Both the position numbers and the translations under genes were made by a program. Below, in pieces: positions 20,056-33,607 of a stretch of DNA of 64,000 nt. The stretch is taken from NCBI RefSeq assembly GCF_030269125.1, contig NZ_BSSM01000001.1, forward strand, positions 930,001 to 994,000, given 5' to 3'. Below the pieces are notes generated by a model. That model was given only the letters and a program-made list of their open reading frames with translations. It did no database searches and was not told the origin of the DNA. The stretch's first letter is position 1. The number at the start of each line of letters is the position of its first letter. The DNA comes from Streptomyces hygroscopicus subsp. hygroscopicus (lineage in GTDB: Bacteria; Actinomycetota; Actinomycetes; Streptomycetales; Streptomycetaceae).

Positions 20056-21348
20056 GTGACACACCCGTCCCCCGGGTTCGGTGAGGAACTGAGGAAGCGC
20101 CGGCTCGCCGCCGGACTGAGCCTGACGGTCCTGTCCAGCGAAGTGCACTACAGCAAGGCGCAGTTGAGCAAGGTCGAGCGGGGCATCAAAGCGCCCAGTC
20201 ACGACCTCGCCCGGCTGTGCGACGCCGCGCTCGGTGCCGACGGAGAGCTGATCGCCCTCGTCCCGAAGGGCACCCCCGAAACACCCGCCGAGCCCGAGCC
20301 GGGCCAGGTCGAAGAGGAGGACTGGATCATGGAGTTGTCACCGGACGGTCCCAACCGGTTCCACCCCGTGGGGCGACGCCGGGTGATGGGCGCCGGTGTC
20401 GCCTCCCTGATGACCTGGCGCCCGGACGGTACGGGCCCGGCGACCCCGGCCGCGGGCGCGGGCATGCTGGAGGCGTCCCGCTCGCTGTTCACGCACTACC
20501 GAAGGCTCGGCCAGTCCGTGGCGCCCGGACTCCTCCTGCCCGTGCTGATCGCCCAGACGCACACACTGCGGGAACTGTCCGCCCAGTCCGACGCCGCCAA
20601 CCGTCGCCGGCTCCTCGCCCTGGGCTCCCGGTACGCCGAATACGTCGGCTGGCTGGTGCAGGAGACCGGGGACGAGAAGGCGGCCCTGTGGTGGACACGG
20701 CGCGCGGTCGATCTCGCGGCCGCCGGCGGTGACCGGGCGCTGGCCGGGTACGCGCTGGTCCGCAGGGCGCTGGTCACGCTGTACCGCGACGACGCCGCGG
20801 AGACCGTCGCCCTGGCCCGCCGCGCCCAGAGCGGCTCGCTGCCGCCCAGGATCCGCGGGCTCGCCGCACAACGCGAGGCCCAGGGACACGCGTTGGCGGG
20901 AGACCGCACCGCCTGCCTGCACGCCCTGGACCGGGCCCGCGACCTGCTCGCCCGGCACGAGGGCGATGCCGACGAGCCGGTCATCGGCACCATGCACCTG
21001 CCCGACTCCGTCGCCATGGTCACCGGCTGGTGCCTGGTCGACCTCGGCCGGCCGAAGGAGGCGGGCGAGGTGCTCGACCGGCAACTCGCCCTGGTCGGCC
21101 CGGACGCGGTGCGCACCCGGGTGCGGTACGGGGTGCGGCGCGCGCTCGCCTACGCCTCCGCCGGAGAGATCGACCACGCCTGTGCGCTGACCGAGCCGCT
21201 GCTCGACGGCGTGGCGGCGGTGCGCTCGGCGACCGTCATCACCGACCTGCGACGCCTCGCCCGCGTGCTCGCCCGGCACGCGGACCACCCTGCCGTACGC
21301 CGACTGGGCCCGCGACTCGGCACGTTGTCGCGCCTGTCCACTTCCTGA
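20056..21348 (+). CDS. XRE-family regulator with C-terminal helical-repeat sensor domain
   Basis: 430 aa. GTG at 20056 lies five bases after GGAGG, a better start than the in-frame GTG at 20038. Residues about 8-65 form the helix-turn-helix: ELRKRRLAAGLSLTVLSSEV followed by YSKAQLSKVERGIKAPS. The rest is alpha-helical and TPR-like (about 140-430), typical of Streptomyces XRE regulators that sense peptides or partner proteins. The region near RRRVMGAGVASLMTW resembles a linker found in many of these proteins. It starts a run with the TIR gene 13 bp behind, so it likely regulates the operon. The GGTGAC/GTCACC palindrome upstream is a candidate operator. Confidence 0.88.
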   Translation: MTHPSPGFGEELRKRRLAAGLSLTVLSSEVHYSKAQLSKVERGIKAPSHDLARLCDAALGADGELIALVPKGTPETPAEPEPGQVEEEDWIMELSPDGPNRFHPVGRRRVMGAGVASLMTWRPDGTGPATPAAGAGMLEASRSLFTHYRRLGQSVAPGLLLPVLIAQTHTLRELSAQSDAANRRRLLALGSRYAEYVGWLVQETGDEKAALWWTRRAVDLAAAGGDRALAGYALVRRALVTLYRDDAAETVALARRAQSGSLPPRIRGLAAQREAQGHALAGDRTACLHALDRARDLLARHEGDADEPVIGTMHLPDSVAMVTGWCLVDLGRPKEAGEVLDRQLALVGPDAVRTRVRYGVRRALAYASAGEIDHACALTEPLLDGVAAVRSATVITDLRRLARVLARHADHPAVRRLGPRLGTLSRLSTS

Positions 21349-21361
21349 AGGAGACGTCACC

Positions 21362-22114
21362 ATGCACGAGGTTTTCATCAACTACCGCACCGGGGACGGG
21401 GACAAGACCGCCGCACTGATCGACGAGGAGCTGAAGCGCCGCTTCGGCCGTGACCGCGTCTTCCGCGCGTCGAGGTCCATCACCCCCGGCGAGGCCTTCC
21501 CCGACAGGCTGCTCACCACGGTGCGCCGCGCCTCCCTCCTCCTGGCCGTCGTGGGCCCGGACTGGACGAACTTCCGGACCCGGCTGAACGACCCGGAGGA
21601 CTGGGTGCGCAAGGAGATCGAGGAGGCGTTCACCTGCGAGGTCCCCGTCGTGCCCATCCTGGACGGCCGCAGGACCGCCCGGCTGGACAAGGCCGCCCTG
21701 CCGGACGCGCTGTCCCGGCTCGCCGACCTCCAGTCCGTCCCGTTCGACACCCAGGACGCCGAGACCGGCCTGCGGCGCATCGGCGACCTCGTGGCCGACC
21801 TGGTCCCCGGCCTGACCGATCTGACCAGGGCCGAAGAGAACGCGTCACAGGGCTCCGTCACCAACTCGATCGACGACATGAGCGGAACCGCCGTGCAGAG
21901 CCGCGACTTCACCGGAGACGTCGGCGGCACCGTCATCAAGGACGCCCACGGTCCCGTGCACACGGGAGGCGGCAGCATCTACCAGAACTCCCGGCACGTC
22001 TCGGGCGGCCGGCACTTCTCCGGCAACGGGATGACGTACTTCGAGGGCGACAACCACGGCGGCATCCAGCACCGTTACGACGCTCCCGAACGGGGCGAGG
22101 ACGACGGCCGGTGA
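21362..22114 (+). CDS. TIR-domain protein with glycine-rich repetitive tail
   Basis: 250 aa, ATG at 21362 after GGAG. Residues 1-135 are a TIR domain: MHEVFINYRTGDGDKTA opens strand A, FRASRSITPGEAF forms the BB-loop region, and DPEDWVRKEIEEAFTCEVPV holds Glu85, which aligns by eye with the catalytic Glu of NADase TIR domains such as SARM1 (WVHKEI). NAD+ cleavage is therefore plausible. From about 145 the tail is rich in Gly, Ser, His and Asn with recurring short beta-like units (FTGDVGG, VHTGGGSIY, RHVSGGRHFSGNG), suggesting a beta-solenoid or assembly tail. Its HTGGG matches the N-terminus of the next protein. The stop overlaps that gene by four bases (GTGA). Confidence 0.88.
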   Translation: MHEVFINYRTGDGDKTAALIDEELKRRFGRDRVFRASRSITPGEAFPDRLLTTVRRASLLLAVVGPDWTNFRTRLNDPEDWVRKEIEEAFTCEVPVVPILDGRRTARLDKAALPDALSRLADLQSVPFDTQDAETGLRRIGDLVADLVPGLTDLTRAEENASQGSVTNSIDDMSGTAVQSRDFTGDVGGTVIKDAHGPVHTGGGSIYQNSRHVSGGRHFSGNGMTYFEGDNHGGIQHRYDAPERGEDDGR

Positions 22115-24105
22115 GTCCGTTCGGCAGTACCCGCATCGACAGCGCGAACGCCTTCACGCACACGGGCGGCGGCGACTTCCACGTGCACCTGGGCACCGAG
22201 TCGCAGAACCCGCACGGACCTGCCTTCCGCAAGGTCGCGGACGACCAGCTCGTCTGGTTGCGAAGGATGCTGGTCGCCCCGGCCAACATGGGCGAGGCCC
22301 GCGCCACGCTCGCCGACACCGGCACCGTCATTCTCGACGGCGCCCCGGGCAGCGGCCGTAGCTCGACCGCCAAGGTGCTCCTGCACGAGTACCACCGGGA
22401 AAGCGGCGTCTACAGCGAGCTGGCAGCCGGCGACGACGAGCAACTCCCGCTGCACGACCCGGGCTTGGTCGGAGCCGGCGACCGTCTGCTGCTCGACCTG
22501 TCCGACGCCGCCCGGTGGTCCGCCGCGCGGGCCGGCCTGTCCACCCTCCGCAAGTCCGTCCACGAGAAGAACGCGCGTCTCGTGGTCGTCATGCCGCACC
22601 GCGACACCCTCGACCCCGATCTCCAGCGCTTCCGGGTCGAGATCCGGCGGCCCCCGGGCCGTCAGGTGCTCAGACGGCACCTGCGCATGCACGGGCTGCC
22701 GTACGAGCAGTACATGCAACAACTCGACCAGGAAACCGAGGAGTTCGTCGCCGAGCGGCCGATGCGGGAGATCGCGGACCTCGCCGACCTGGTGCGCCGG
22801 GCCCGTGCGTCCGCTCGGCCCGGCGACGGGTTGGCGCAGTGGTGTGCGACCGCGAGGGGCGCGCGGAACGACCGGCGCAAGGAGGTCGCGGAGCTCGTGA
22901 GACGGCTGCCCGAAGCATCCCAGCGCGCGCTTCTGGTGACCGTCGCCCTGCTGCACGACGCGCACGCCGACGTCGTGCACCGCGCGGCGGCACTCCTGCT
23001 GGAGGCCCTCGGGCCCGGCTCGGAAGAGATCCCGCTGCTCCAGCACAAGGACCTCGCCGAGCGGCTCAAGGAGATCGGGGCCGGCGCGGACGCGGACGGA
23101 TTCGTGCGGTTCACCGAACTGGACTACGACTCCGCCGTCCGCGCCCACTTCTGGGACCACATGCCCGACCTGCGCCCCCACCTCGGAGCGTGGGCGGCGG
23201 ACGTCGTGGAACTCGACGATCCGCACCTGACCCCGGCCGTCCGTGATGATCTGGTGGCGCGGCTGGCCGGTCAGTACCTGCGCACCGGGCGCCCGGAGGG
23301 GCTCGCGTCGCTCGCCGAGAAGTGGAGCGCCGAGTCGGCGGTCCAGGTGCGTCTGGAGGCCGCGGTGCGGGCGCTGACCCGCGGGCTCGACGACCCGGCG
23401 CACGGCGGGTCTTTCCGGAAGCGGATCTACCAGTGGTGCGCCCACCACCGTCTCACGGCAGAGTTCGCCCAGGTGCTCGTCCAGGTGTGCGCGGACGTCC
23501 TCGCGTCCAACCACCCGGACATGGCCCTGTACCGGCTGTACCACCTGGCCCGGCGCGAACGCGGAACCACCCGTGCCCGGGACGCGCTGCGCGCGCTGGT
23601 GGCGAGGAGCGGCCGGCTCTACCGCACACTGCTCGACCGCCTCATCAGGCACGGCGGCCCCACACCCTCCGACCTCACCATCTTCCTGCACGTCAGCGAC
23701 CCGGAGCTGCTGACGGACGCCACCCGTACGGCGCGCGCGCTGGTGGAGGAGGCGGGTGTGCGACGCTGCCTGACCGCCTGCTGGTGCGCCGTACTCGCCG
23801 AGTTGCCCCGGACGGCATGGCAGCGGCAGGCGGTGGCCTGGCTGCACCGGGCCACCGAAGACGCGGACCACGTCGGCGAGTCGCTGCTCGATCTACTCGT
23901 CGGCGCGGCGGAGCAAGGCCGGGAGCGGCGCGGTGAGATGTTCGCCGCGCTGTACGCGGCCGCCCGCGCCGCCGAGCGTACGGCTCCGGGGGGACCCGTG
24001 CGTGCCGCCGGGACGACCGGACTGCTGCTGCACAAGATCGGTGTGGCCCAGGGCCTCCGCCCGGCCGGCCCGCCACCGTCATCGACCAGGGGGACACGAC
24101 CGTGA
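22111..24105 (+). CDS. STAND-like P-loop protein with altered Walker A and helical repeats
   Basis: 664 aa from GTG 22111. The first 30 residues contain FTHTGGGDFHVHLG, echoing the tail of the TIR protein. A P-loop-like site reads GAPGSGRSS at 77-85, with Arg where the Walker A Lys belongs, and RLLLDLSD near 125-132 is the Walker B region. From about 165 to 660 the protein is helical, with repeated leucine-rich helices (LLVTVALLHDAHADVVHRAA). Loss of the Walker Lys suggests poor or absent ATP hydrolysis, so it may be an inactive STAND-type scaffold or adaptor. It overlaps both neighbours by four bases (GTGA), implying stoichiometric co-translation. No named family can be assigned with confidence. 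Confidence 0.7.
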   Translation: MSPFGSTRIDSANAFTHTGGGDFHVHLGTESQNPHGPAFRKVADDQLVWLRRMLVAPANMGEARATLADTGTVILDGAPGSGRSSTAKVLLHEYHRESGVYSELAAGDDEQLPLHDPGLVGAGDRLLLDLSDAARWSAARAGLSTLRKSVHEKNARLVVVMPHRDTLDPDLQRFRVEIRRPPGRQVLRRHLRMHGLPYEQYMQQLDQETEEFVAERPMREIADLADLVRRARASARPGDGLAQWCATARGARNDRRKEVAELVRRLPEASQRALLVTVALLHDAHADVVHRAAALLLEALGPGSEEIPLLQHKDLAERLKEIGAGADADGFVRFTELDYDSAVRAHFWDHMPDLRPHLGAWAADVVELDDPHLTPAVRDDLVARLAGQYLRTGRPEGLASLAEKWSAESAVQVRLEAAVRALTRGLDDPAHGGSFRKRIYQWCAHHRLTAEFAQVLVQVCADVLASNHPDMALYRLYHLARRERGTTRARDALRALVARSGRLYRTLLDRLIRHGGPTPSDLTIFLHVSDPELLTDATRTARALVEEAGVRRCLTACWCAVLAELPRTAWQRQAVAWLHRATEDADHVGESLLDLLVGAAEQGRERRGEMFAALYAAARAAERTAPGGPVRAAGTTGLLLHKIGVAQGLRPAGPPPSSTRGTRP

Positions 24106-25118
24106 CGACCGCGCGCAAGACGACGACCGTCTTCCTCACCATTCTGTGCGCCTTGCTGCTGGCCATCGTCGGCCTGACCGAGCGGTGGCCCGCCTGGGCG
24201 TGGGCCACGCTGGCGGTTCTGCTCGTCGTCCTGCCGGCCGCCGCCATGAGGATCGCCGCCGCGCGCCGCGGGCCGGTGCCCGTCGTATTCGAGGAGCAGC
24301 TCACGGCACCGCCCGTCGAGCGCACGGACTGCCAGGTGAGCCAGGTGGCGCTGCCCAGTCTTCGGGAGGACTACGACTTCGTCTTCTCGGCGACCGTACG
24401 GTGGTACCTGGTCGAATCGCCGGGCAGCGCCCCCGTCCTCAACCCCTCGGGGCTCGCCGCGGAAACGGTCCTGAACCGCGCCCGCGCCCTCACCGAGAAG
24501 CGCGAGCCGGGCCAGGCCTCGCTCGTCCAACACGAACTGGGCGGCCTCCTCAGCCGGATGTTCCCCGACCCCACGGGACAACTCCAGGCCATGGCCGAGA
24601 ACATCAGTCTCACCCTGCTCCCCCAGGACCAGGAACGCCTGGACCGGCTCGCCAAGGTCCGCAAGGACAAGGCGGTCTGGGAACACCAGCGCACGTACGA
24701 GCAGAGCAGACGTCAGTATCTGGGCGAGGACGTGCTCAAGGACACGGGCAGCGCCGTGGTCTGGTGGCTCGCCAAGAACGACGAACACGTGGAGAAGACG
24801 GTCGCCGATCTCGGCCTGCTCGCCCAACTCACCTCGGCGGCCAACGACTCGGACATCCCCGCGCGTCTCCAGGATCTCCTGTCACCGCCCCGCCCCGACG
24901 AACCGATCACCACGGAACACTCAGAGGAACCCACGCGGCAGCGGTCGGCGGCGGATCACGTCTCGGACCTCTTCGACGCCATGGGCTTCACGGACGGAGA
25001 CCCCCGACGAGAGATGCTGGCCGCCCAGTTCGCCCACATCCTCAAAGAACAGAACCGCTACGAGACGGCCGAGGAACTGCTGCGCCGCTTCGCCCCTCCG
25101 GGGGGTGACGCCGATTAG
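24102..25118 (+). CDS. Two-TM membrane protein, possibly SPFH-like
   Basis: 338 aa, GTG at 24102 inside the stop of the previous gene. Two adjacent transmembrane helices occupy about residues 10-28 and 30-52. A beta-rich section follows (YDFVFSATVRWYLVE near 95-110), then a charged helical region likely to form a coiled coil (about 170-215, RLDRLAKVRKDKAVWEHQR). This order resembles stomatin/SPFH proteins, which form membrane-bound oligomeric rings, but the match is by topology only. The C-terminal 100 residues are hydrophilic and end with a short helical DLFDAMGFTDG module. As third gene of the TIR operon it may anchor the complex at the membrane. Confidence 0.65.
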   Translation: MTTARKTTTVFLTILCALLLAIVGLTERWPAWAWATLAVLLVVLPAAAMRIAAARRGPVPVVFEEQLTAPPVERTDCQVSQVALPSLREDYDFVFSATVRWYLVESPGSAPVLNPSGLAAETVLNRARALTEKREPGQASLVQHELGGLLSRMFPDPTGQLQAMAENISLTLLPQDQERLDRLAKVRKDKAVWEHQRTYEQSRRQYLGEDVLKDTGSAVVWWLAKNDEHVEKTVADLGLLAQLTSAANDSDIPARLQDLLSPPRPDEPITTEHSEEPTRQRSAADHVSDLFDAMGFTDGDPRREMLAAQFAHILKEQNRYETAEELLRRFAPPGGDAD

Positions 25119-25353
25119 GACGGGCCGGAGGCGTGCCACCGGCTGCGCCGAGGAACCAGGGTCACATCTCTTGTAGCCGCAGTCGCTCCCTCAGGCCCCG
25201 TGAGTCGTCCTTGGAGTCCTTCACGCTGCTGCGCCAGGCCGCCCATGCGCTCGACAGCGCCCAGAGCGACGGAAGATACTCGTAACCGTCCACAGAGTGT
25301 GTCCGTACGCCGACTGAACGTACAGGCCGCTCCTCGCCCGGCCGGGATGGTGC

Positions 25354-28300
25354 ATGAGGTCTCGTTTACAGGTGGTGCTGCAGATCCTGCTGGCGCTGGT
25401 CGCCTGCCTGCTCGGCATCGCCACCAACTACGCCACCAGTACGAACCGCGGGCCCTGGGTGCTGGAGGTCATCCGGCGGGGGTCCGTTCCGGCCATCGGG
25501 TTGCTGATCGTCGCGATGGTGGTCGGGCAGGTGGTCGTGTACCGGCTGGAGAACCCGGCGCCCGAGCAGACGGAGTGGCCACGGGACCGGGTCCCTTATC
25601 CGGGTCTCGACGCCTACGGCGAGGACGAGTCGGCCGTCTACTTCGGCCGGGAGGCCCAGGCGGCCGAGCTGACGCGTCGGCTGAACACCGCCGCTCCTGG
25701 CCCCGCCGACCGGTTCGTGCTGCTGACGGGCGCGTCCGGCAGTGGCAAGTCCTCGCTCGTCCGCGCCGGCGTGCTGCCCCGGCTGCGCAAGCGCCGGTGG
25801 ACGATCCTGCCACCCTTCTCCCCGGGCGCGAACCCGCTGCACGCCTTGGCGACAGCTCTGTCCGCTGCGGGCGAGGGCGGCGACACGGCCGACGCGATAC
25901 TGCGACGACTCAGGCGCGGACCAGGGGAGTTGGCCGCCGAGCTCTCACGTCTGCGCAGCCCGCACCGGCGGATCCTGATCGTCATCGATCAGTTCGAGGA
26001 ACTCGTCACCCTGGCGAGCGAGCGAGAACGGGACCAGTTCCTCGACGCCGTGCGCGCATGCCTCCGGCACTGGTCTTCGGTCCGGGTGTTGGCCACGTGT
26101 CGTGTGGACCTGCTGGGCCGGCTGCTCGGGACCGGCCACGCGCCCATGTTCCAACATCCCGTGGCCATCGGGACATTGAGTCGCGCACAGCTGGTGCGCG
26201 TCGTGGAACGGCCCGGCGCTCTGGTGGGGATGTCCTTCGCCCCCGGTCTGGTGGAGACCATCGTGGACGACACCGGAACCGATGACGCGCTGCCTCTTCT
26301 CGCCTATCTGCTCCAGGAGTTGTACTTCGTCTGTGGTCCTGGAAACACGGTGACGGAGGAGTCGTACCACCGACTCGGCGGAGTGGCTGGGGCGCTCGCC
26401 CGGCAGGCGGACAACACGGTGGCGGCGCTCGACAGCCCCGACGGCGTCGACTTCGTCCTGCGGGTGCTGCTCAGGTTCGTGACGCTGGAGGAGCGGGACC
26501 TCGCCCGCCGACCGGTCTCGCTGACCGAACTCAGTGATCGGGAACGGTATGTGGTGGACGCGTTCATCGATGCGCGTCTCATCCGGTCCGACGCCACGGC
26601 TTCGGGAGCGGCCGGCGAGGCGTACGCCGAGGTCACGCACGAGGCGCTGTTCCGGCAGTGGGCGCCGCTGCGGCAGGAAGCGGAGGCCAGAGCGGAACGG
26701 CTGCGGGAGCGGGCCGAATTGGAGCGGTGGGCTGCCGACTGGGAGCACTCCGGGCGCAGCGCGGACTACCTTCTCACCGGGGAACGGCTCGCCGTGGCCC
26801 AGCGTTGGCTGGACGCGTTGGAGGAGGCCGGACAGGCGTCGACGCCCGCCCGTGCGCTCGTGGACGCCTCGCAGCGCCGTGACCTGGCTTTCCTGAGCCG
26901 GGTCTCGGACAGCATCGGCCGCCAGGTCATCACCGGCGCGGAGGCAGAGCCGGAGCGGGCGCTGCTGCTGTCCCTCGCCGCGCTCGGCGAGTGCGCGCCC
27001 ACACCGGCCGCGCGACGCGGACTGCTTACCGCCCTGGCCGTGAGCCACGCCCGGCTCCGTCTGGAGGGACACTCGGACACGGTCCGGGACATCGCGTGGT
27101 CGGCGGACGCCCGGCTGTTGGCCACCGCGTCCCGGGACGGGACCGCTCGCGTCTACGATGCCGAGTCGGGGCGGCAGTTGCGCGTGCTGCCGTGCGACGA
27201 CGCCATGGTCGAATCAGTGTCCTTCTCACCGGACGCGACCATGCTCGCCACCGCCGGACGCGACCAGGTCGTACGCGTCTGGGACGTGCGGTCCGGCGCG
27301 CCGGTCCGCCGTCTCACCGGTGCCGGGGACATCGGGCGGCAGGTGGCCTGGTCGCCCGACGGGTCCCGGATCGCCGCCTCCTTCAGGGACCAGGTCGTCC
27401 GTGTGTGGGACGCCGAGGGCGGCGAGCTCGTACAAGAACTGCACGGCCACACCGGTGATGTGTGGGGCGTGGCATGGGCCCCGGACGGCTCGCGTCTGGC
27501 CACCGCGTCGCATGACCGCACGGCCGTCATCTGGACGACGGAAACGGGCCTGGCCACGACGATCCTGACCGGGCACACAGAGTTCGTGGAAGGCATCGCG
27601 TGGTCGCCGGACGGCCGGTGCGTGGCCACCGGGTCGGGCGACCACACCGCGCGCGTCTGGGACGCCGGCACCGGGGTACAACTGCTCCTGCTGCGCGGCC
27701 ACGCGGACTACGTGTGGAACCCGTCCTTCTCCCCCGACGGACGGCTGCTGGCGACCCCGTCGTCCGACCGCACCGTCCAAGTGGTCCGCGTGGACGACGC
27801 CAAGGTGGTGACCGTGCTGCGCGGCCACACCGACACGGTGTGGACGGTCGTATGGTCGCCGTCGGGCACCCAGTTGGCCACCGCCTCGACCGACGGCACC
27901 GGCCGGGTATGGGACCTCCAGCCTCGGGGCGGCGAGTCCGTGCGGCTACAGGGGCATGACGGCCCGGTGAACCAGGCCGTCTGGTCCGCCGACGGGACCA
28001 GACTGGCCACAGTCTCCGACGACGGCACCGCCCGGATCTGGAGCGCCGAGACCGGGGACGTCGTCCAGCCGTTGGCGTCGCTCGGCGCCCGCGGGTGGAG
28101 CGTGGCGTGGGCACCGTACGGCGACCGGCTCGCCCTCGGTACGGCGGATGGCGTCCTGCGTGTCGTGGAATCCGCCGGCGGCACGGTCTTCGAGCTGCGC
28201 GGCGAGCCGGTCGAGGGCTGCTCGTGGTCCCCGGACAGCCGCCGCATCGCGACCGGCAGCCATGACGGCACGGTCCGCATCCTCTCCGCCGTCGACGGCA

Positions 28301-28902
28301 CCGAACTGCGCAAGCTGACCGGCCACCAGGACTGGGTGGGCCGAGTCGCCTGGTCCCCGAGCGGTCGCGGCCTGGCCAGTTGCTCCGACGACCGCACCTG
28401 CCGCCTGTGGGACACCTCCGACGGCAGCCAGCTGACCGTGCTCCGCGGCCATGGCAACTACGTCGAGGACGCCGCCTGGTCACCCGACGAGACCCGGGTG
28501 GCGACGGCGTCCGGCGACTGGACGGCCGCGGTGTGGGACGTGGCGACGGGCCGCCGTATCGACGTCCTGAAGGGACACGAGGGCCGAGTGCGTGCCATCG
28601 CCTGGTCCCCCGACGGCAGCCGCATCGCGACGGGCTCGGACGACCGGACGGTACGGCTCTGGTCGGCGACCACCTTCGCGGAACTCGCCGTCATCGGCGT
28701 CCATCGCGACAAGGTCACCTCGGTCGCCTGGTCCCCCGACGGGACCCGTCTGCTCACCGCCTCCACCGACCGCACCGCCCGCGTCTGGCCTGCCGACCCG
28801 GACTACGACCGGCTGGAGGCGCGGGCGCGTGGCCGCGTCTTCCGCACGCTGGACGCGGAGGAACGGCGACAGCATCTGCTGCCGCCGGGTCCCGGGTGCT
28901 GA
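25354..28902 (+). CDS. Membrane-anchored nSTAND NTPase with 14 WD40 repeats
   Basis: 1,182 aa, ATG at 25354. Two N-terminal hydrophobic helices (about 5-25 and 45-63) anchor it. The nSTAND domain begins YPGLDAYGEDESAVYFGRE, the usual lead-in for this group, with Walker A GASGSGKSS at 126-134 and Walker B ILIVIDQFEEL at 207-217. A helical region runs to about 560. The rest holds 14 WD40 units of about 41 residues, from LRLEGHSDTVRDIAWSADAR to VIGVHRDKVTSVAWSPDG, enough for two seven-bladed propellers; blades 9 and 10 are shorter and lack the GH dipeptide. A 235-bp gap separates it from the SPFH-like gene, so it may have its own promoter. Signal sensing is the family role; the ligand is unknown. 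Confidence 0.9.
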   Translation: MRSRLQVVLQILLALVACLLGIATNYATSTNRGPWVLEVIRRGSVPAIGLLIVAMVVGQVVVYRLENPAPEQTEWPRDRVPYPGLDAYGEDESAVYFGREAQAAELTRRLNTAAPGPADRFVLLTGASGSGKSSLVRAGVLPRLRKRRWTILPPFSPGANPLHALATALSAAGEGGDTADAILRRLRRGPGELAAELSRLRSPHRRILIVIDQFEELVTLASERERDQFLDAVRACLRHWSSVRVLATCRVDLLGRLLGTGHAPMFQHPVAIGTLSRAQLVRVVERPGALVGMSFAPGLVETIVDDTGTDDALPLLAYLLQELYFVCGPGNTVTEESYHRLGGVAGALARQADNTVAALDSPDGVDFVLRVLLRFVTLEERDLARRPVSLTELSDRERYVVDAFIDARLIRSDATASGAAGEAYAEVTHEALFRQWAPLRQEAEARAERLRERAELERWAADWEHSGRSADYLLTGERLAVAQRWLDALEEAGQASTPARALVDASQRRDLAFLSRVSDSIGRQVITGAEAEPERALLLSLAALGECAPTPAARRGLLTALAVSHARLRLEGHSDTVRDIAWSADARLLATASRDGTARVYDAESGRQLRVLPCDDAMVESVSFSPDATMLATAGRDQVVRVWDVRSGAPVRRLTGAGDIGRQVAWSPDGSRIAASFRDQVVRVWDAEGGELVQELHGHTGDVWGVAWAPDGSRLATASHDRTAVIWTTETGLATTILTGHTEFVEGIAWSPDGRCVATGSGDHTARVWDAGTGVQLLLLRGHADYVWNPSFSPDGRLLATPSSDRTVQVVRVDDAKVVTVLRGHTDTVWTVVWSPSGTQLATASTDGTGRVWDLQPRGGESVRLQGHDGPVNQAVWSADGTRLATVSDDGTARIWSAETGDVVQPLASLGARGWSVAWAPYGDRLALGTADGVLRVVESAGGTVFELRGEPVEGCSWSPDSRRIATGSHDGTVRILSAVDGTELRKLTGHQDWVGRVAWSPSGRGLASCSDDRTCRLWDTSDGSQLTVLRGHGNYVEDAAWSPDETRVATASGDWTAAVWDVATGRRIDVLKGHEGRVRAIAWSPDGSRIATGSDDRTVRLWSATTFAELAVIGVHRDKVTSVAWSPDGTRLLTASTDRTARVWPADPDYDRLEARARGRVFRTLDAEERRQHLLPPGPGC

Positions 28903-31291: not shown

Positions 31292-33607
31292 GTGCGTGGT
31301 GACACGCCTCTCACGGGGGACTTCGGGCAGCGACTGCGCCGGCTGCGGGCCCGCGCCGGGCTGAGCCAGGAGTCGCTCGCACACACGTCCGGGGTGAGTG
31401 TCAGGGCCCTGGCCGACATGGAGCGCGGGCGCACCCGGGGGCCACAACGCCGTACGGTCCAGGTGCTGGCCGAGGCGCTGGGCCTGGACGACGAGGAGGC
31501 GGCGGCCCTGGAGAAGTCCGCCGCGCTGGGCCGCCCGCGTCCCCGTGCGGCCACCGACCCGGTCACCCCCGGCACCCTGGCCCTGCCGCGCGACATCCAG
31601 GACTTCACCGCCCGCGGCCCGGCCCTCGCCCGGCTGCTGGAGCTGGCCCGGGACACCGGTCCGGACCGGCCGGCGGTCGCGGTCGTCGCCGGTCAACCCG
31701 GTCTGGGCAAGACCGCGTTCGCCGTGCACGCCGCGCACCACCTCGCCCCGCACTTCCCGGACGGGCAGTTCGCCCTGGACCTGCACGGCATGGATCCGGA
31801 GCCGACCGCACCCCGGGACGCGCTGGCCCGGCTGCTGGGCGCGATGGGGATCGCCGACGCCGCGATACCGGCCGGCACCGACGACCGCGCGGGCCTGTGG
31901 CGGTCCCTGGTCGGCGACCGGCGCGTGCTCCTGCTCCTGGACAACGCCGTCGACGAGTCCCAGGTCGGCCCGTTGCTGCCGGGTACCGGCGGGTCGCTGA
32001 CCATCGTCACCAGCCGCCACTCCCTCGCGGGTCTGGAGTCCGTCCACCGCAGCGACCTGGCCCTGCTGCGGCGCGAGGAGGCGGTGGAACTCCTGACCCG
32101 CATCATCGGCCCGGACCGGGTCCGGGCCGAGGCGCAGGCCGCGCGCGATCTCGCCGACCTGTGCGGACATCTGCCGCTGGCCGTCCGGATCGCCGGGCAA
32201 CGGCTCCTCAGCCGCCCGCACGAACGCCTGAGCAAGCTCGTCGCCCGCCTCGCCGCCGAGGGCCGACGACTGGACGGACTCCAGGCCGGAAGCCTGCGGG
32301 TGCGCGCCGCCTTCGCCCTCTCGTACCGTCAACTGCCTTCGCACACACGGACGTTCCTGCGCCGGGCGTCGCTGGCCGCCGGAGCGGACTTCAGCCCGGA
32401 GACCGGCGCGCTCCTGGCCGGCCTGTCCTACGACGAGGCGGTCGCTTGCGCCGAGGAACTGACCGACGCCGGGCTGCTGCAGAGCGACGCCACCGCCGAG
32501 CGCTACCGCTTCCACGACCTGCTCAAGCTCTACGCGGCCGAACAGGTCGCCGCCGAGGACGGTCCCGAGATCCGCGACGCCGCCCTCGACCGGACCGCGC
32601 GCTGGATGCTGCGCCGGGCCACGGCCGCGGCGCTGCACTTCGACGTCGAGCACGACGGGACCGCCCTCGGCGAGACCGACGGCGACCCGGACCCGGACGG
32701 AGCGCCCACCGGACGGGAGGAGGCGCGGGCCTGGCTGGAGGCCGAACGGGCCCAGTGGCTCGCCGCGCTGCGCCGGGCCCACAGCACCGGCCGGCACCGG
32801 CAGGTCGTGGACACGGCGCAGGCGATGCACTGGTTCTCCGATCTCAACCAGCACTGGGAAGAGTGGGTCGAGGTGTTCCAGCGCTCCTCGGACTCCGCCC
32901 GTGTGCTGGGCAGCAGCCGGGACGAGGCGGTCCACCTCAACTACCTCGCCTGGGCCTACAACATGTGCCTCCACGACCCCCACACCGCGCTGTCGACCGC
33001 CGACGCCGCGCTCGTGGCGGCCCGCGACTGCGGCGACGGCCTCCAGGAAGGCTGGGCACTCGGGTACGGCGCGGGCGCGCTGCACCGGCAGGGCCGGACG
33101 GAGGAGGCGCACGCGCGGCTGCGCGAGGCGGCCGGCTGCCTGGCCTCGCAGGACTCCCCGCAGGCCCGGCTGGGCGAGCTGACGATCCTCAACTCCCTCG
33201 GCACGCTGCTCCGCCAGGCCGGGCGGGCGGCGGAGGCCCTGGAGACCCACCGCCGCAGCGAGCGGATCTGCCGCGTGGGAATCCCGGGCCGTACCGACGA
33301 GTTGATCGCGCTGTACCGCGCCGTCGCCCGACAGCAGATCGGCAACGACCTCGCGGCCCTGGAGCGCTGGTCCGAGGCCGAACCACCCCTCCGCCAGGCC
33401 CTCGCCGCCTTCGAGGCCGCCCACATGCCGGCCTGGGCCGGCCCGGCCCGCCTCGACCTGGGCCACGTCCTCAGCGCCATGGCCCACCCGGAGGCCCGTG
33501 CGACGCTGCTCACCGCCCGCGACGACCTCACCGAGCTGCGAAGCCCGCGCCAGGCCGAGGCCACGGCCGCCCTCACGGCCCTCGACGAGGCGGGCGCCGC
33601 CAGGTGA
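31292..33607 (+). CDS. XRE helix-turn-helix / NB-ARC ATPase / TPR regulator
   Basis: 771 aa from GTG 31292. An XRE domain (residues about 12-68) contains RLRRLRARAGLSQESLAHTS and a GVSVRALADMERG recognition helix. An NB-ARC type ATPase follows: Walker A GQPGLGKTA at 134-142, Walker B RVLLLLDNAVD at 211-221, GSLTIVTSRH like the RNBS-B sensor Arg, and CGHLPLAVRIAG as the GxP motif. The C-terminal 300 residues are TPR-like helices. This resembles the ATPase-TPR half of AfsR/SARP regulators with an XRE DNA-binding domain in place of the SARP domain, common near secondary metabolism or conflict genes. It stands alone here; its target is unknown. ATP-controlled oligomerisation is the family mechanism. 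Confidence 0.9.
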   Translation: MRGDTPLTGDFGQRLRRLRARAGLSQESLAHTSGVSVRALADMERGRTRGPQRRTVQVLAEALGLDDEEAAALEKSAALGRPRPRAATDPVTPGTLALPRDIQDFTARGPALARLLELARDTGPDRPAVAVVAGQPGLGKTAFAVHAAHHLAPHFPDGQFALDLHGMDPEPTAPRDALARLLGAMGIADAAIPAGTDDRAGLWRSLVGDRRVLLLLDNAVDESQVGPLLPGTGGSLTIVTSRHSLAGLESVHRSDLALLRREEAVELLTRIIGPDRVRAEAQAARDLADLCGHLPLAVRIAGQRLLSRPHERLSKLVARLAAEGRRLDGLQAGSLRVRAAFALSYRQLPSHTRTFLRRASLAAGADFSPETGALLAGLSYDEAVACAEELTDAGLLQSDATAERYRFHDLLKLYAAEQVAAEDGPEIRDAALDRTARWMLRRATAAALHFDVEHDGTALGETDGDPDPDGAPTGREEARAWLEAERAQWLAALRRAHSTGRHRQVVDTAQAMHWFSDLNQHWEEWVEVFQRSSDSARVLGSSRDEAVHLNYLAWAYNMCLHDPHTALSTADAALVAARDCGDGLQEGWALGYGAGALHRQGRTEEAHARLREAAGCLASQDSPQARLGELTILNSLGTLLRQAGRAAEALETHRRSERICRVGIPGRTDELIALYRAVARQQIGNDLAALERWSEAEPPLRQALAAFEAAHMPAWAGPARLDLGHVLSAMAHPEARATLLTARDDLTELRSPRQAEATAALTALDEAGAAR

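What the first reader, a model, noticed from the sequence alone, without database searches (positions are those of the whole stretch)
20056..28902. XRE-TIR-iSTAND-like-SPFH-like-nSTAND/WD40 operon, a second candidate conflict system
A SARM1-like TIR protein (putative NADase), an NTPase-like protein with a mutated Walker Lys, a two-TM SPFH-like protein and a membrane-anchored nSTAND/WD40 protein are arranged in order, three of them in GTGA-coupled pairs. An XRE regulator heads the run. The membrane proteins and the WD40 sensor suggest a signalling assembly that triggers NAD depletion.
Basis: partly seen in the sequence, partly recalled or inferred. Interest (0 to 1): 0.78.

Follow-up and report, generated by a model that had tools for sequence, protein, structure and literature searches.

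The report
TIR switch with matching protein tails
A four-gene unit found in many thread-forming soil bacteria pairs a likely NAD-destroying enzyme with an immune-receptor-like protein, and the two carry the same short sequence tag, which suggests that the receptor switches the enzyme on by tag-to-tag assembly.

Summary
The genes are real, but the unit has four members, not five. XRE(NsdA-family)-TIR-664aa-338aa stand in that order in 114 of 121 loci. The nSTAND1/WD40 gene was not seen after the cassette in any other locus, and it is unlinked in the four genomes found with both.

The TIR is SARM1-like (Glu85 in 119 of 119). The 664-aa protein is a STAND/AAA+ relative whose Walker Lys is replaced (Arg in 112 of 114). 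The 338-aa protein has an SPFH fold behind a hydrophobic helical hairpin.

Missed was the link: TIR C-tail and 664-aa N-terminus share a short motif (GPVHTGxGxxY), specific to these two proteins and covarying locus by locus. In relatives the effector can be cyclase-like or BELL-like. In 20 loci of another family (14 cyclase-like, 6 TIR) tail and receptor match at p<=0.01 in 13, often in a locus-specific sequence.

Best reading: a modular receptor-effector cassette signalling by homotypic tail assembly, perhaps amyloid-like, ending in NAD+ cleavage. Homotypic pairing is well supported; amyloid fold, trigger and defence role are inferred.

The parts
20056..21348 (+). XRE HTH + TPR-like regulator, NsdA family (alternative start 20038)
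   Evidence: HTH_31 3.7e-12; NF053720 E 5.6e-59, above cut-off; recognised ahead of TIR in 38 of 40 loci by BLAST; in order in 114 of 121
21362..22114 (+). TIR effector, 250 aa: TIR domain aa 1-140, glycine-rich C-tail aa ~150-250
   Evidence: PF13676 3.5e-8; family profile vs SARM1 1e-16; E85 119/119, W81 119/119
21863..21922 (+). RHIM-like stretch in TIR tail (aa 168-187, NSIDDMSGTAVQSRDFTGDV); resemblance by eye, function unproven
   Evidence: alignments; a BELL-tail scoring matrix does not find it significantly
21935..21988 (+). homotypic motif in TIR C-tail (aa 192-209, IKDAHGPVHTGGGSIYQN)
   Evidence: G202 invariant, G197, H200, G204 nearly invariant in A4
22111..24105 (+). STAND/AAA+-like receptor, 664 aa
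   Evidence: weak nSTAND3 (1.7e-4, below cut-off; homologue L084 passes it); AF2 model pLDDT 86.6; Foldseek hits include Avs5, Avs4, SAMD9
22135..22188 (+). matching homotypic motif at receptor N-terminus (aa 9-26, IDSANAFTHTGGGDFHVH), predicted disordered
   Evidence: pLDDT about 30 for residues 1-30
22339..22365 (+). degenerate Walker A, GAPGSGRSS (Lys to Arg at R83)
   Evidence: R 112, L 1, T 1, 5 gaps of 119
22873..24060 (+). C-terminal helical region of the receptor (aa ~255-650), presumed sensor
   Evidence: helices in the AF2 model; sensor role is inference
24102..25118 (+). 338-aa membrane protein: hydrophobic helical hairpin aa 3-55, SPFH fold aa 73-207
   Evidence: AF2 pLDDT 86.4, pTM 0.51; stomatin 4fvg Z 8.9, rmsd 3.3 over 103; prohibitin, HflK/C, QmcA, vault also listed; Foldseek best E 3.4e-3

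Best explanation
A modular receptor-effector signalling cassette. The 664-aa STAND-like protein is the receptor. Its C-terminal helical region probably senses an unknown trigger. Its AAA+-like core has lost the Walker lysine and probably works as an assembly scaffold rather than an ATPase. On activation its N-terminal motif is clustered and recruits or templates the matching motif in the C-tail of the TIR protein. That brings TIR domains together and turns on NAD+ cleavage. The 338-aa SPFH-fold protein anchors or organises the assembly at the membrane, and the NsdA-family XRE protein controls expression. The likely outcome is NAD+ depletion and death or arrest of the affected hyphal compartment, probably against phage. 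Shown by computation: operon, domains, catalytic Glu, shared and covarying motif, effector exchange. Inferred: activation by assembly, amyloid-like fold, NADase activity, trigger, biological role.
For: Conserved order in 114 of 121 loci, duplicates and window included. Linkage survives rearrangement: in L211-L215 the XRE gene lies on the opposite strand after 338. A matrix built from 61 receptor N-termini scores 97 of 109 TIR tails above 99.9% of composition shuffles, against 1 of 1506 other proteins, itself a piece of a split TIR. Partial Mantel r=0.25, p=0.0005 over 96 loci, controlling receptor body and TIR domain. Seven loci lack a recognisable motif in both proteins. Effector exchange: L210 has a cyclase-like protein whose tail matches its own receptor (21/37 identical, score 113 vs maximum 48 of 2000 shuffles). 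In 20 loci of that family, L210's own among them, the effector is cyclase-like in 14 and TIR in 6, the third gene is present in 20, and the tail matches at p<=0.01 in 13: 9 of 14 cyclase-like, 4 of 6 TIR. Own receptor ranks first of 20 for 12 tails. SARM1 profile match with E85.
Against: No experiment. Amyloid formation is not shown; the published BASS3 peptide does not match the motif better than its shuffles (357 of 5000 reach it). In the window itself the pairwise match is modest (45, equal to the maximum of 500 shuffles). The pattern used to pick the 61 receptor segments was written after seeing both proteins. In 10 further loci only the receptor falls below the motif threshold, in 6 more its start was mis-called, and in 5 only the TIR falls below. 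Within strata of receptors joined at >=70% identity the pairing excess fades (p=0.051), and own TIR motif beats the nearest relative's receptor in only 61 of 96 loci. 8 of 14 diverged loci and 7 of 20 do not reach p<=0.01, and some of the 20 are close relatives. No phage or defence-island evidence was obtained.
Confidence: 0.62

Rival explanations
1. The shared tails are ordinary homotypic binding segments (a structured beta contact or disordered sticker), not amyloid; the cassette works as a stoichiometric complex.
For: The motif is short and Gly-rich; the BASS3 reference peptide is not significantly similar. Folded EADs are proposed to recruit effectors homotypically without amyloid (PMC8195603, passages).
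Against: Position (effector C-terminus, receptor N-terminus, adjacent or overlapping genes, filamentous bacteria) is that described for bacterial amyloid signalling motifs (PMC7889193, passages); the motif is predicted disordered in the monomer.
Confidence: 0.3
2. The TIR makes a nucleotide signal (cADPR-type) rather than depleting NAD+; the replaceable cyclase-like effectors would likewise be signal makers.
For: Cyclase-like effectors take the TIR position in relatives. Thoeris TIRs act this way (recalled).
Against: No receptor gene for such a signal was recognised in the cassette; the solved TIRs found by profile are SARM1, an NAD hydrolase (1e-16), and far behind Cat1 (0.0045).
Confidence: 0.22
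3. A developmental or antibiotic-regulating switch of mycelial actinobacteria rather than a defence system.
For: The first gene is NsdA-family, and an NsdA protein is a negative regulator of an antibiotic in Streptomyces (PMC12243394, search listing and start of abstract only). A group of loci sits at one core site, metK-priA by eye.
Against: Patchy: strong 664 hits in 46 of 199 Streptomyces genomes (counted); present or absent at the same junction; effector differs between relatives.
Confidence: 0.15
4. The first reader's five-part assembly with the WD40 nSTAND as sensor.
For: Adjacent in the window, same strand, 235 bp apart; no terminator-like site between.
Against: Not seen downstream in other loci; unlinked in 4 of 4 genomes with both; a promoter-like site lies in the gap.
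Confidence: 0.04

Closest known systems
Bacterial amyloid signalling (BASS) NLR-effector gene pairs (Dyrka 2020, not held; described in PMC7889193, passages)
   Same: Adjacent or overlapping effector and NLR-like genes in filamentous bacteria, same short motif at effector C-terminus and receptor N-terminus; TIR reported among the less frequent effectors
   Different: Third conserved gene with SPFH fold, receptor core without Walker Lys and with a helical C-terminal region, XRE/NsdA regulator, TIR and cyclase-like effectors in the same position; membership of the motif in BASS1-10 not established
EAD-linked STAND/ternary conflict systems (Kaur et al. 2020, 2021; PMC7159879, PMC8195603, passages)
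   Same: Effectors joined to a core by homotypic adaptors, enriched in multicellular bacteria; TIR and cyclase are among the effectors there
   Different: No MoxR-vWA pair found among the window genes scanned; the adaptor here is a short motif predicted disordered, whereas most EADs are folded helical domains
SARM1 and bacterial TIR NADases
   Same: TIR profile E 1e-16 with the DWVxxE block
   Different: No ARM/SAM regions; activation is proposed through a C-terminal tail
Avs/AVAST STAND receptors (Avs4, Avs5)
   Same: Among the Foldseek hits of the receptor model (9jap 1.4e-4, 8dgf 1.7e-4, TM-scores about 0.2)
   Different: Avs carry the effector on the same chain (recalled; 9jap is titled SIR2-STAND); here it is a separate protein and the Walker Lys is lost
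Prohibitin/stomatin/HflK-C SPFH proteins
   Same: SPFH fold in the 338-aa protein
   Different: Two-helix N-terminal hairpin, no sequence-family hit, found with this cassette

Membership tests
Bacterial amyloid signalling NLR cassette | Adjacent effector and NLR/STAND genes | tested here: met
Bacterial amyloid signalling NLR cassette | Same motif at effector C-terminus and receptor N-terminus | tested here: met
Bacterial amyloid signalling NLR cassette | Motif belongs to one of families BASS1-10 | tested here: inconclusive
   Only the BASS3 reference peptide was available; not significant; Dyrka 2020 not held
Bacterial amyloid signalling NLR cassette | Cross-beta fibrils that seed | not testable with these tools
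   needs peptides
SARM1-like TIR NADase | TIR domain with catalytic Glu | tested here: met
   (that this Glu is SARM1's catalytic residue is recalled)
SARM1-like TIR NADase | NAD+ hydrolysis | not testable with these tools
   needs assay
STAND NTPase | AAA+-like core with STAND relatives | tested here: met
   for the window protein itself the nSTAND3 score is below cut-off
STAND NTPase | Intact Walker A Lys | tested here: not met
   0 Lys of 114 scoreable sequences in the TIR set; a Lys is present in L210
iSTAND of MoxR-vWA ternary systems | MoxR and vWA genes alongside | tested here: not met
   no such domain among the 14 of 51 called window genes scanned with Pfam (gene count); neighbours in other loci were not Pfam-scanned
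SPFH family (338 aa) | SPFH fold | tested here: met
   Z 8.9, rmsd 3.3 over 103 to 4fvg; first 24 rows are SPFH proteins, their complexes or vaults, other folds from rank 25 (Z 8.1); Foldseek E only 3.4e-3
SPFH family (338 aa) | Ring or cage oligomer | not testable with these tools
   needs structure
Thoeris | ThsB TIR with ThsA partner | tested here: not met
   PADLOC at E<=1: TIR hits ThsB only at 0.05, no ThsA model among the hits of the five proteins; a homologue hits ThsB at 4.3e-4; NCBIfam type III Thoeris 0.0059, far below cut-off
NsdA family regulator | NF053720 above cut-off | tested here: met
   200.7 vs 75 bits
WD40 nSTAND as a fifth component | Conserved linkage to the cassette | tested here: not met

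The most novel reading that the evidence does not exclude
A previously undescribed, widespread class of three-gene actinobacterial immune signalosomes. An interchangeable enzyme (TIR NADase, nucleotidyl cyclase or BELL-like killer) is switched on by prion-like templating from a STAND receptor through a locus-private tail code, on an SPFH membrane platform. The private code would insulate several such cassettes in one cell.
Probability: 0.35. Interest if true: 0.88.

Novelty: new variant of a known kind. Interest (0 to 1): 0.75.

Why it matters
The output of bacterial amyloid-type NLR signalling is an acknowledged unknown (PMC7889193, passages). Here the effector is an enzyme with an easy read-out, and its tail and receptor partner are narrowed to about 18 residues each. 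The locus-specific pairing gives a natural set of matched and mismatched tails for testing signalling specificity. The SPFH-fold partner suggests a membrane platform that my literature searches did not show tied to such receptors.

Tried and rejected
WD40 nSTAND as a component: rejected. Label iSTAND: rejected, no MoxR/vWA among the window genes scanned.

TIR tail paired with the downstream BELL-like protein through an RHIM-like motif: looked promising by eye, and a first regex gave an association (35/25/5/45, p=1e-7). That association is confounded by phylogeny and the regex missed many forms. A matrix from BELL tails finds only 2 of 108 TIR tails above the 99.9% shuffle level, and 3 of 1578 other proteins (at least two of its input windows were mis-extracted). 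Not claimed. 'BELL-like' itself rests on the description in PMC7889193, not on a profile.

Motif as plain BASS3: not supported by the reference peptide.

Diverged receptors (L222-L238): tail match at p<=0.01 in 6 of 14; not in 8 (L222, L223, L224, L230, L232, L233, L237, L238; L224 p=0.043). In one search the misses are L244, L246, L249, L252, L253, L256, L258.

Rows dropped: eight loci with mis-called, split or cut genes before the pairing tests (L072, L079, L105, L107, L127, L128, L133, L159), and six more whose TIR score was under 5 or receptor score under 0 (96 of 110 kept). omits one TIR with a short tail, two. One search used every third locus of the main set (34): own mean 49 against 40 permuted, own receptor among the best three for 12 of 34. 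Alignments for models used, besides the window, 60 of 73 receptors, 56 of 73 third-gene proteins and 45 of 76 TIRs, the pools being those listed; 21 of 38 BELL-like proteins.

A first count of Glu by regex misread the position and was replaced by the alignment column. Plasmid and phage searches: 1 plasmid record with the receptor, no phage hit for the 338-aa protein. Phylum-wide receptor search: 3 of 396 genomes at E<=1e-12, but only three candidates per genome were scored, and one search suggests that relatives can be missed that way. Pfam gave nothing above cut-off for the L210 effector and the single protein had no PDB hit; only the family profile linked it to cyclases. Families absent from the fold tables are not read as excluded.
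Full report
Setting. The window lies in an 8.5-Mb genome; its closest named relatives by this cassette are Streptomyces. The five ORFs of the finding are present as described.

The unit has four genes. The 664-aa and 338-aa proteins were searched in 199 genomes of the genus, the window's own included. Counting from those tables, 46 genomes have a 664 hit below 1e-40, and in 44 of these a 338 hit lies directly beside it; the exceptions are G148 and the fragmented G049. I fetched 40 loci. In 40 of 40 the 664 gene has the TIR gene before it and the 338 gene after it. The XRE gene was recognised by BLAST in 38; L081 is cut by a contig end and L085 was unclear. A scan of genome contigs found 222 relatives, of which the best 80 were kept. 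Together, 114 of 121 loci, duplicates and the window included, have XRE-TIR-664-338 in order. The other seven are cut, split, mis-called or carry an extra ORF. After removing copies, 110 distinct loci hold TIR, 664 and 338. Named hosts besides Streptomyces include Kitasatospora, Streptacidiphilus, Actinacidiphila, Streptosporangium, Planomonospora, Sphaerisporangium, Microbispora and Spongiactinospora. Across the class, the 338 profile found 22 of 296 genomes in 9 of 114 genera.

The WD40 gene is a neighbour, not a member. It was seen within five genes in 0 of 40 loci and downstream only in the window; L141 has a 194-aa WD40-like ORF upstream, and a few loci end at a contig edge. Searching its first 569 aa found 17 of 199 genomes at E<=1e-100. 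Four of these besides the window's, G025, G031, G090 and G135, carry an intact cassette, and in all four the two lie on different contigs or 0.85 to 5.4 Mb apart.

What the proteins are. The TIR family profile hits SARM1 at E 1e-16, the DWVxxE block aligning with SARM1's DWVHKE (that this Glu is SARM1's catalytic residue is recalled). E85 is present in 119 of 119 sequences. The 664-aa receptor is a remote nSTAND3 relative: 21.8 bits against a cut-off of 27.2, while homologue L084 scores 29.1. Its model has an AAA+-like core (Z 13.4, rmsd 3.9 over 210, residues 36-256), a helical region to about 650, and a disordered N-terminus 1-34. Foldseek lists Avs5, Avs4 and SAMD9 among its best hits, beside AAA+ proteins, with TM-scores near 0.2. 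The Walker lysine is Arg in 112, Leu in 1, Thr in 1 and gapped in 5 of 119. The 338-aa protein has a hydrophobic helical hairpin and an SPFH fold: stomatin 4fvg Z 8.9, rmsd 3.3 over 103. Foldseek's own E-value is modest (3.4e-3), and DHNA-type folds appear from rank 25 at Z 8.1.

The matching motif. The TIR C-tail and the receptor N-terminus carry the same pattern, xVxxxxGPVHTGxGxxYxx. A matrix built from 61 receptor N-termini was scanned over 109 TIR tails. 97 exceed the 99.9% level of shuffled tails and 91 exceed all 21,800 shuffles. Of 1506 other proteins in the loci only one scores in that range, and it is a fragment of a split TIR gene. The regex that picked the 61 segments was written after looking at both proteins, so its choice is not blind; the scan of other proteins is the control. 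The pairs covary: L081 has GPVHAGQGDL in both proteins, L083 GPVN[TS]GSGTQNN, L084 APFHTG.GD. Over 96 loci the own pair is 53% identical against 44% for other pairs. Partial Mantel correlation controlling for both protein bodies is 0.25, p=0.0005. Stratified permutations give p<=0.002 up to 60% identity strata and p=0.051 at 70%. The own TIR motif beats the nearest relative's receptor in 61 of 96. In seven loci neither protein has a recognisable motif; in 10 others only the receptor is below threshold, and in 5 only the TIR.

Effector exchange. In L210 the TIR position is held by a 256-aa protein. The profile of its relatives (A7) matches class III cyclases (3mr7 E 1.2e-7, Ma1120 7.8e-5). Its tail matches its own receptor's N-terminus in a quite different sequence, 21 of 37 identical, score 113 against a maximum of 48 in 2000 shuffles. 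A search of that family found receptor relatives in 36 of 120 genomes. The 20 loci returned, L210's own among them and some closely related, all have effector, receptor and SPFH-like third gene. The effector is cyclase-like in 14 and TIR in 6. Tail and receptor match at p<=0.01 in 13 of 20: 9 of 14 cyclase-like and 4 of 6 TIR (smallest reachable p 0.0033). Own receptor ranks first among 20 for 12 tails, beats the nearest relative's in 14 of 20, and the own-pair mean is 66 against 34 for permuted pairs. Several of these pairs keep a GPVxTG core, others do not. More distant Streptomyces relatives (L222-L238) show a similar layout with BELL-like, cyclase-like or other short effectors, and a tail match at p<=0.01 in 6 of 14. 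The third gene of these relatives is homologous to the 338-aa protein (hhalign probability 99.6, E 1.1e-23). The pairing rule therefore outlives both the particular enzyme and the particular motif.

Linkage and sites. In family f17 the XRE gene lies on the opposite strand after 338, yet is still adjacent (L211-L215). One large group of loci sits between genes I identify by eye as metK and priA. In 10 of 10 genomes without the cassette that I tested the junction is closed (about 113 to 303 bp), and in 2 of 2 with it it is open by about 5.5 kb. A BELL-like gene with an RHIM-like tail follows 338 in 47 of 121 loci; the window lacks it.

Known work. Amyloid NLR-effector pairs are described for filamentous bacteria, with TIR among the rarer effectors, and their outcome is stated to be unexplored (PMC7889193, passages). 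EAD-based homotypic recruitment is described in PMC7159879 and PMC8195603 (passages). My searches (listings of up to 20 papers each) showed no title or abstract on a TIR or cyclase / STAND / SPFH cassette with matching tails. The library lacks most subscription journals, and Dyrka 2020 itself was not held, so absence from print is not shown.

Verdict. The most likely mechanism is homotypic tail assembly from receptor to TIR at the membrane, ending in NAD+ cleavage. Shown by computation: unit, domains, catalytic residue, motif pairing, effector exchange. Inferred: amyloid nature, activation, trigger, defence.

Noticed in passing
47 of 121 loci, e.g. L062-L068, L070-L072, L104-L172 in part: A 100-180 aa BELL-like gene directly after the 338 gene, hydrophobic N-terminus and RHIM/BASS3-like tail by eye (VHNxIxGGVQHGPVIQSGRITGLTFH); absent in the window. 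Its link to the TIR tail is not demonstrated.
   Followed up: partly
L073-L083 and many of L145-L180: Cassette repeatedly sits between genes that look like metK and priA; the junction is closed in 10 of 10 cassette-free genomes tested, so this core site is an insertion site or the cassette was lost repeatedly.
   Followed up: partly
L210:3183-5126: This receptor keeps the Walker Lys (GKSGAGKE), suggesting the Lys loss belongs to the TIR branch rather than the whole family; L239-L258 were not checked for it.
   Followed up: no
L216-L221: Solo 338-like genes without TIR or receptor; in L216-L219 an OafA-type acyltransferase-like gene (by eye) lies beside them.
   Followed up: no
L075, L080, L082, L161, L163, L165, L170: Loci whose TIR tail and receptor N-terminus both fall below the motif threshold; what replaced it is unclear.
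   Followed up: partly
G164:C1:3751098-3752318 vs 3770908-3772893: A second, partial, stop-interrupted 664-like copy about 20 kb from an intact one.
   Followed up: no
   Followed up: no
window 31292-33607 (+): XRE + NB-ARC + TPR single-chain STAND regulator.
   Followed up: no
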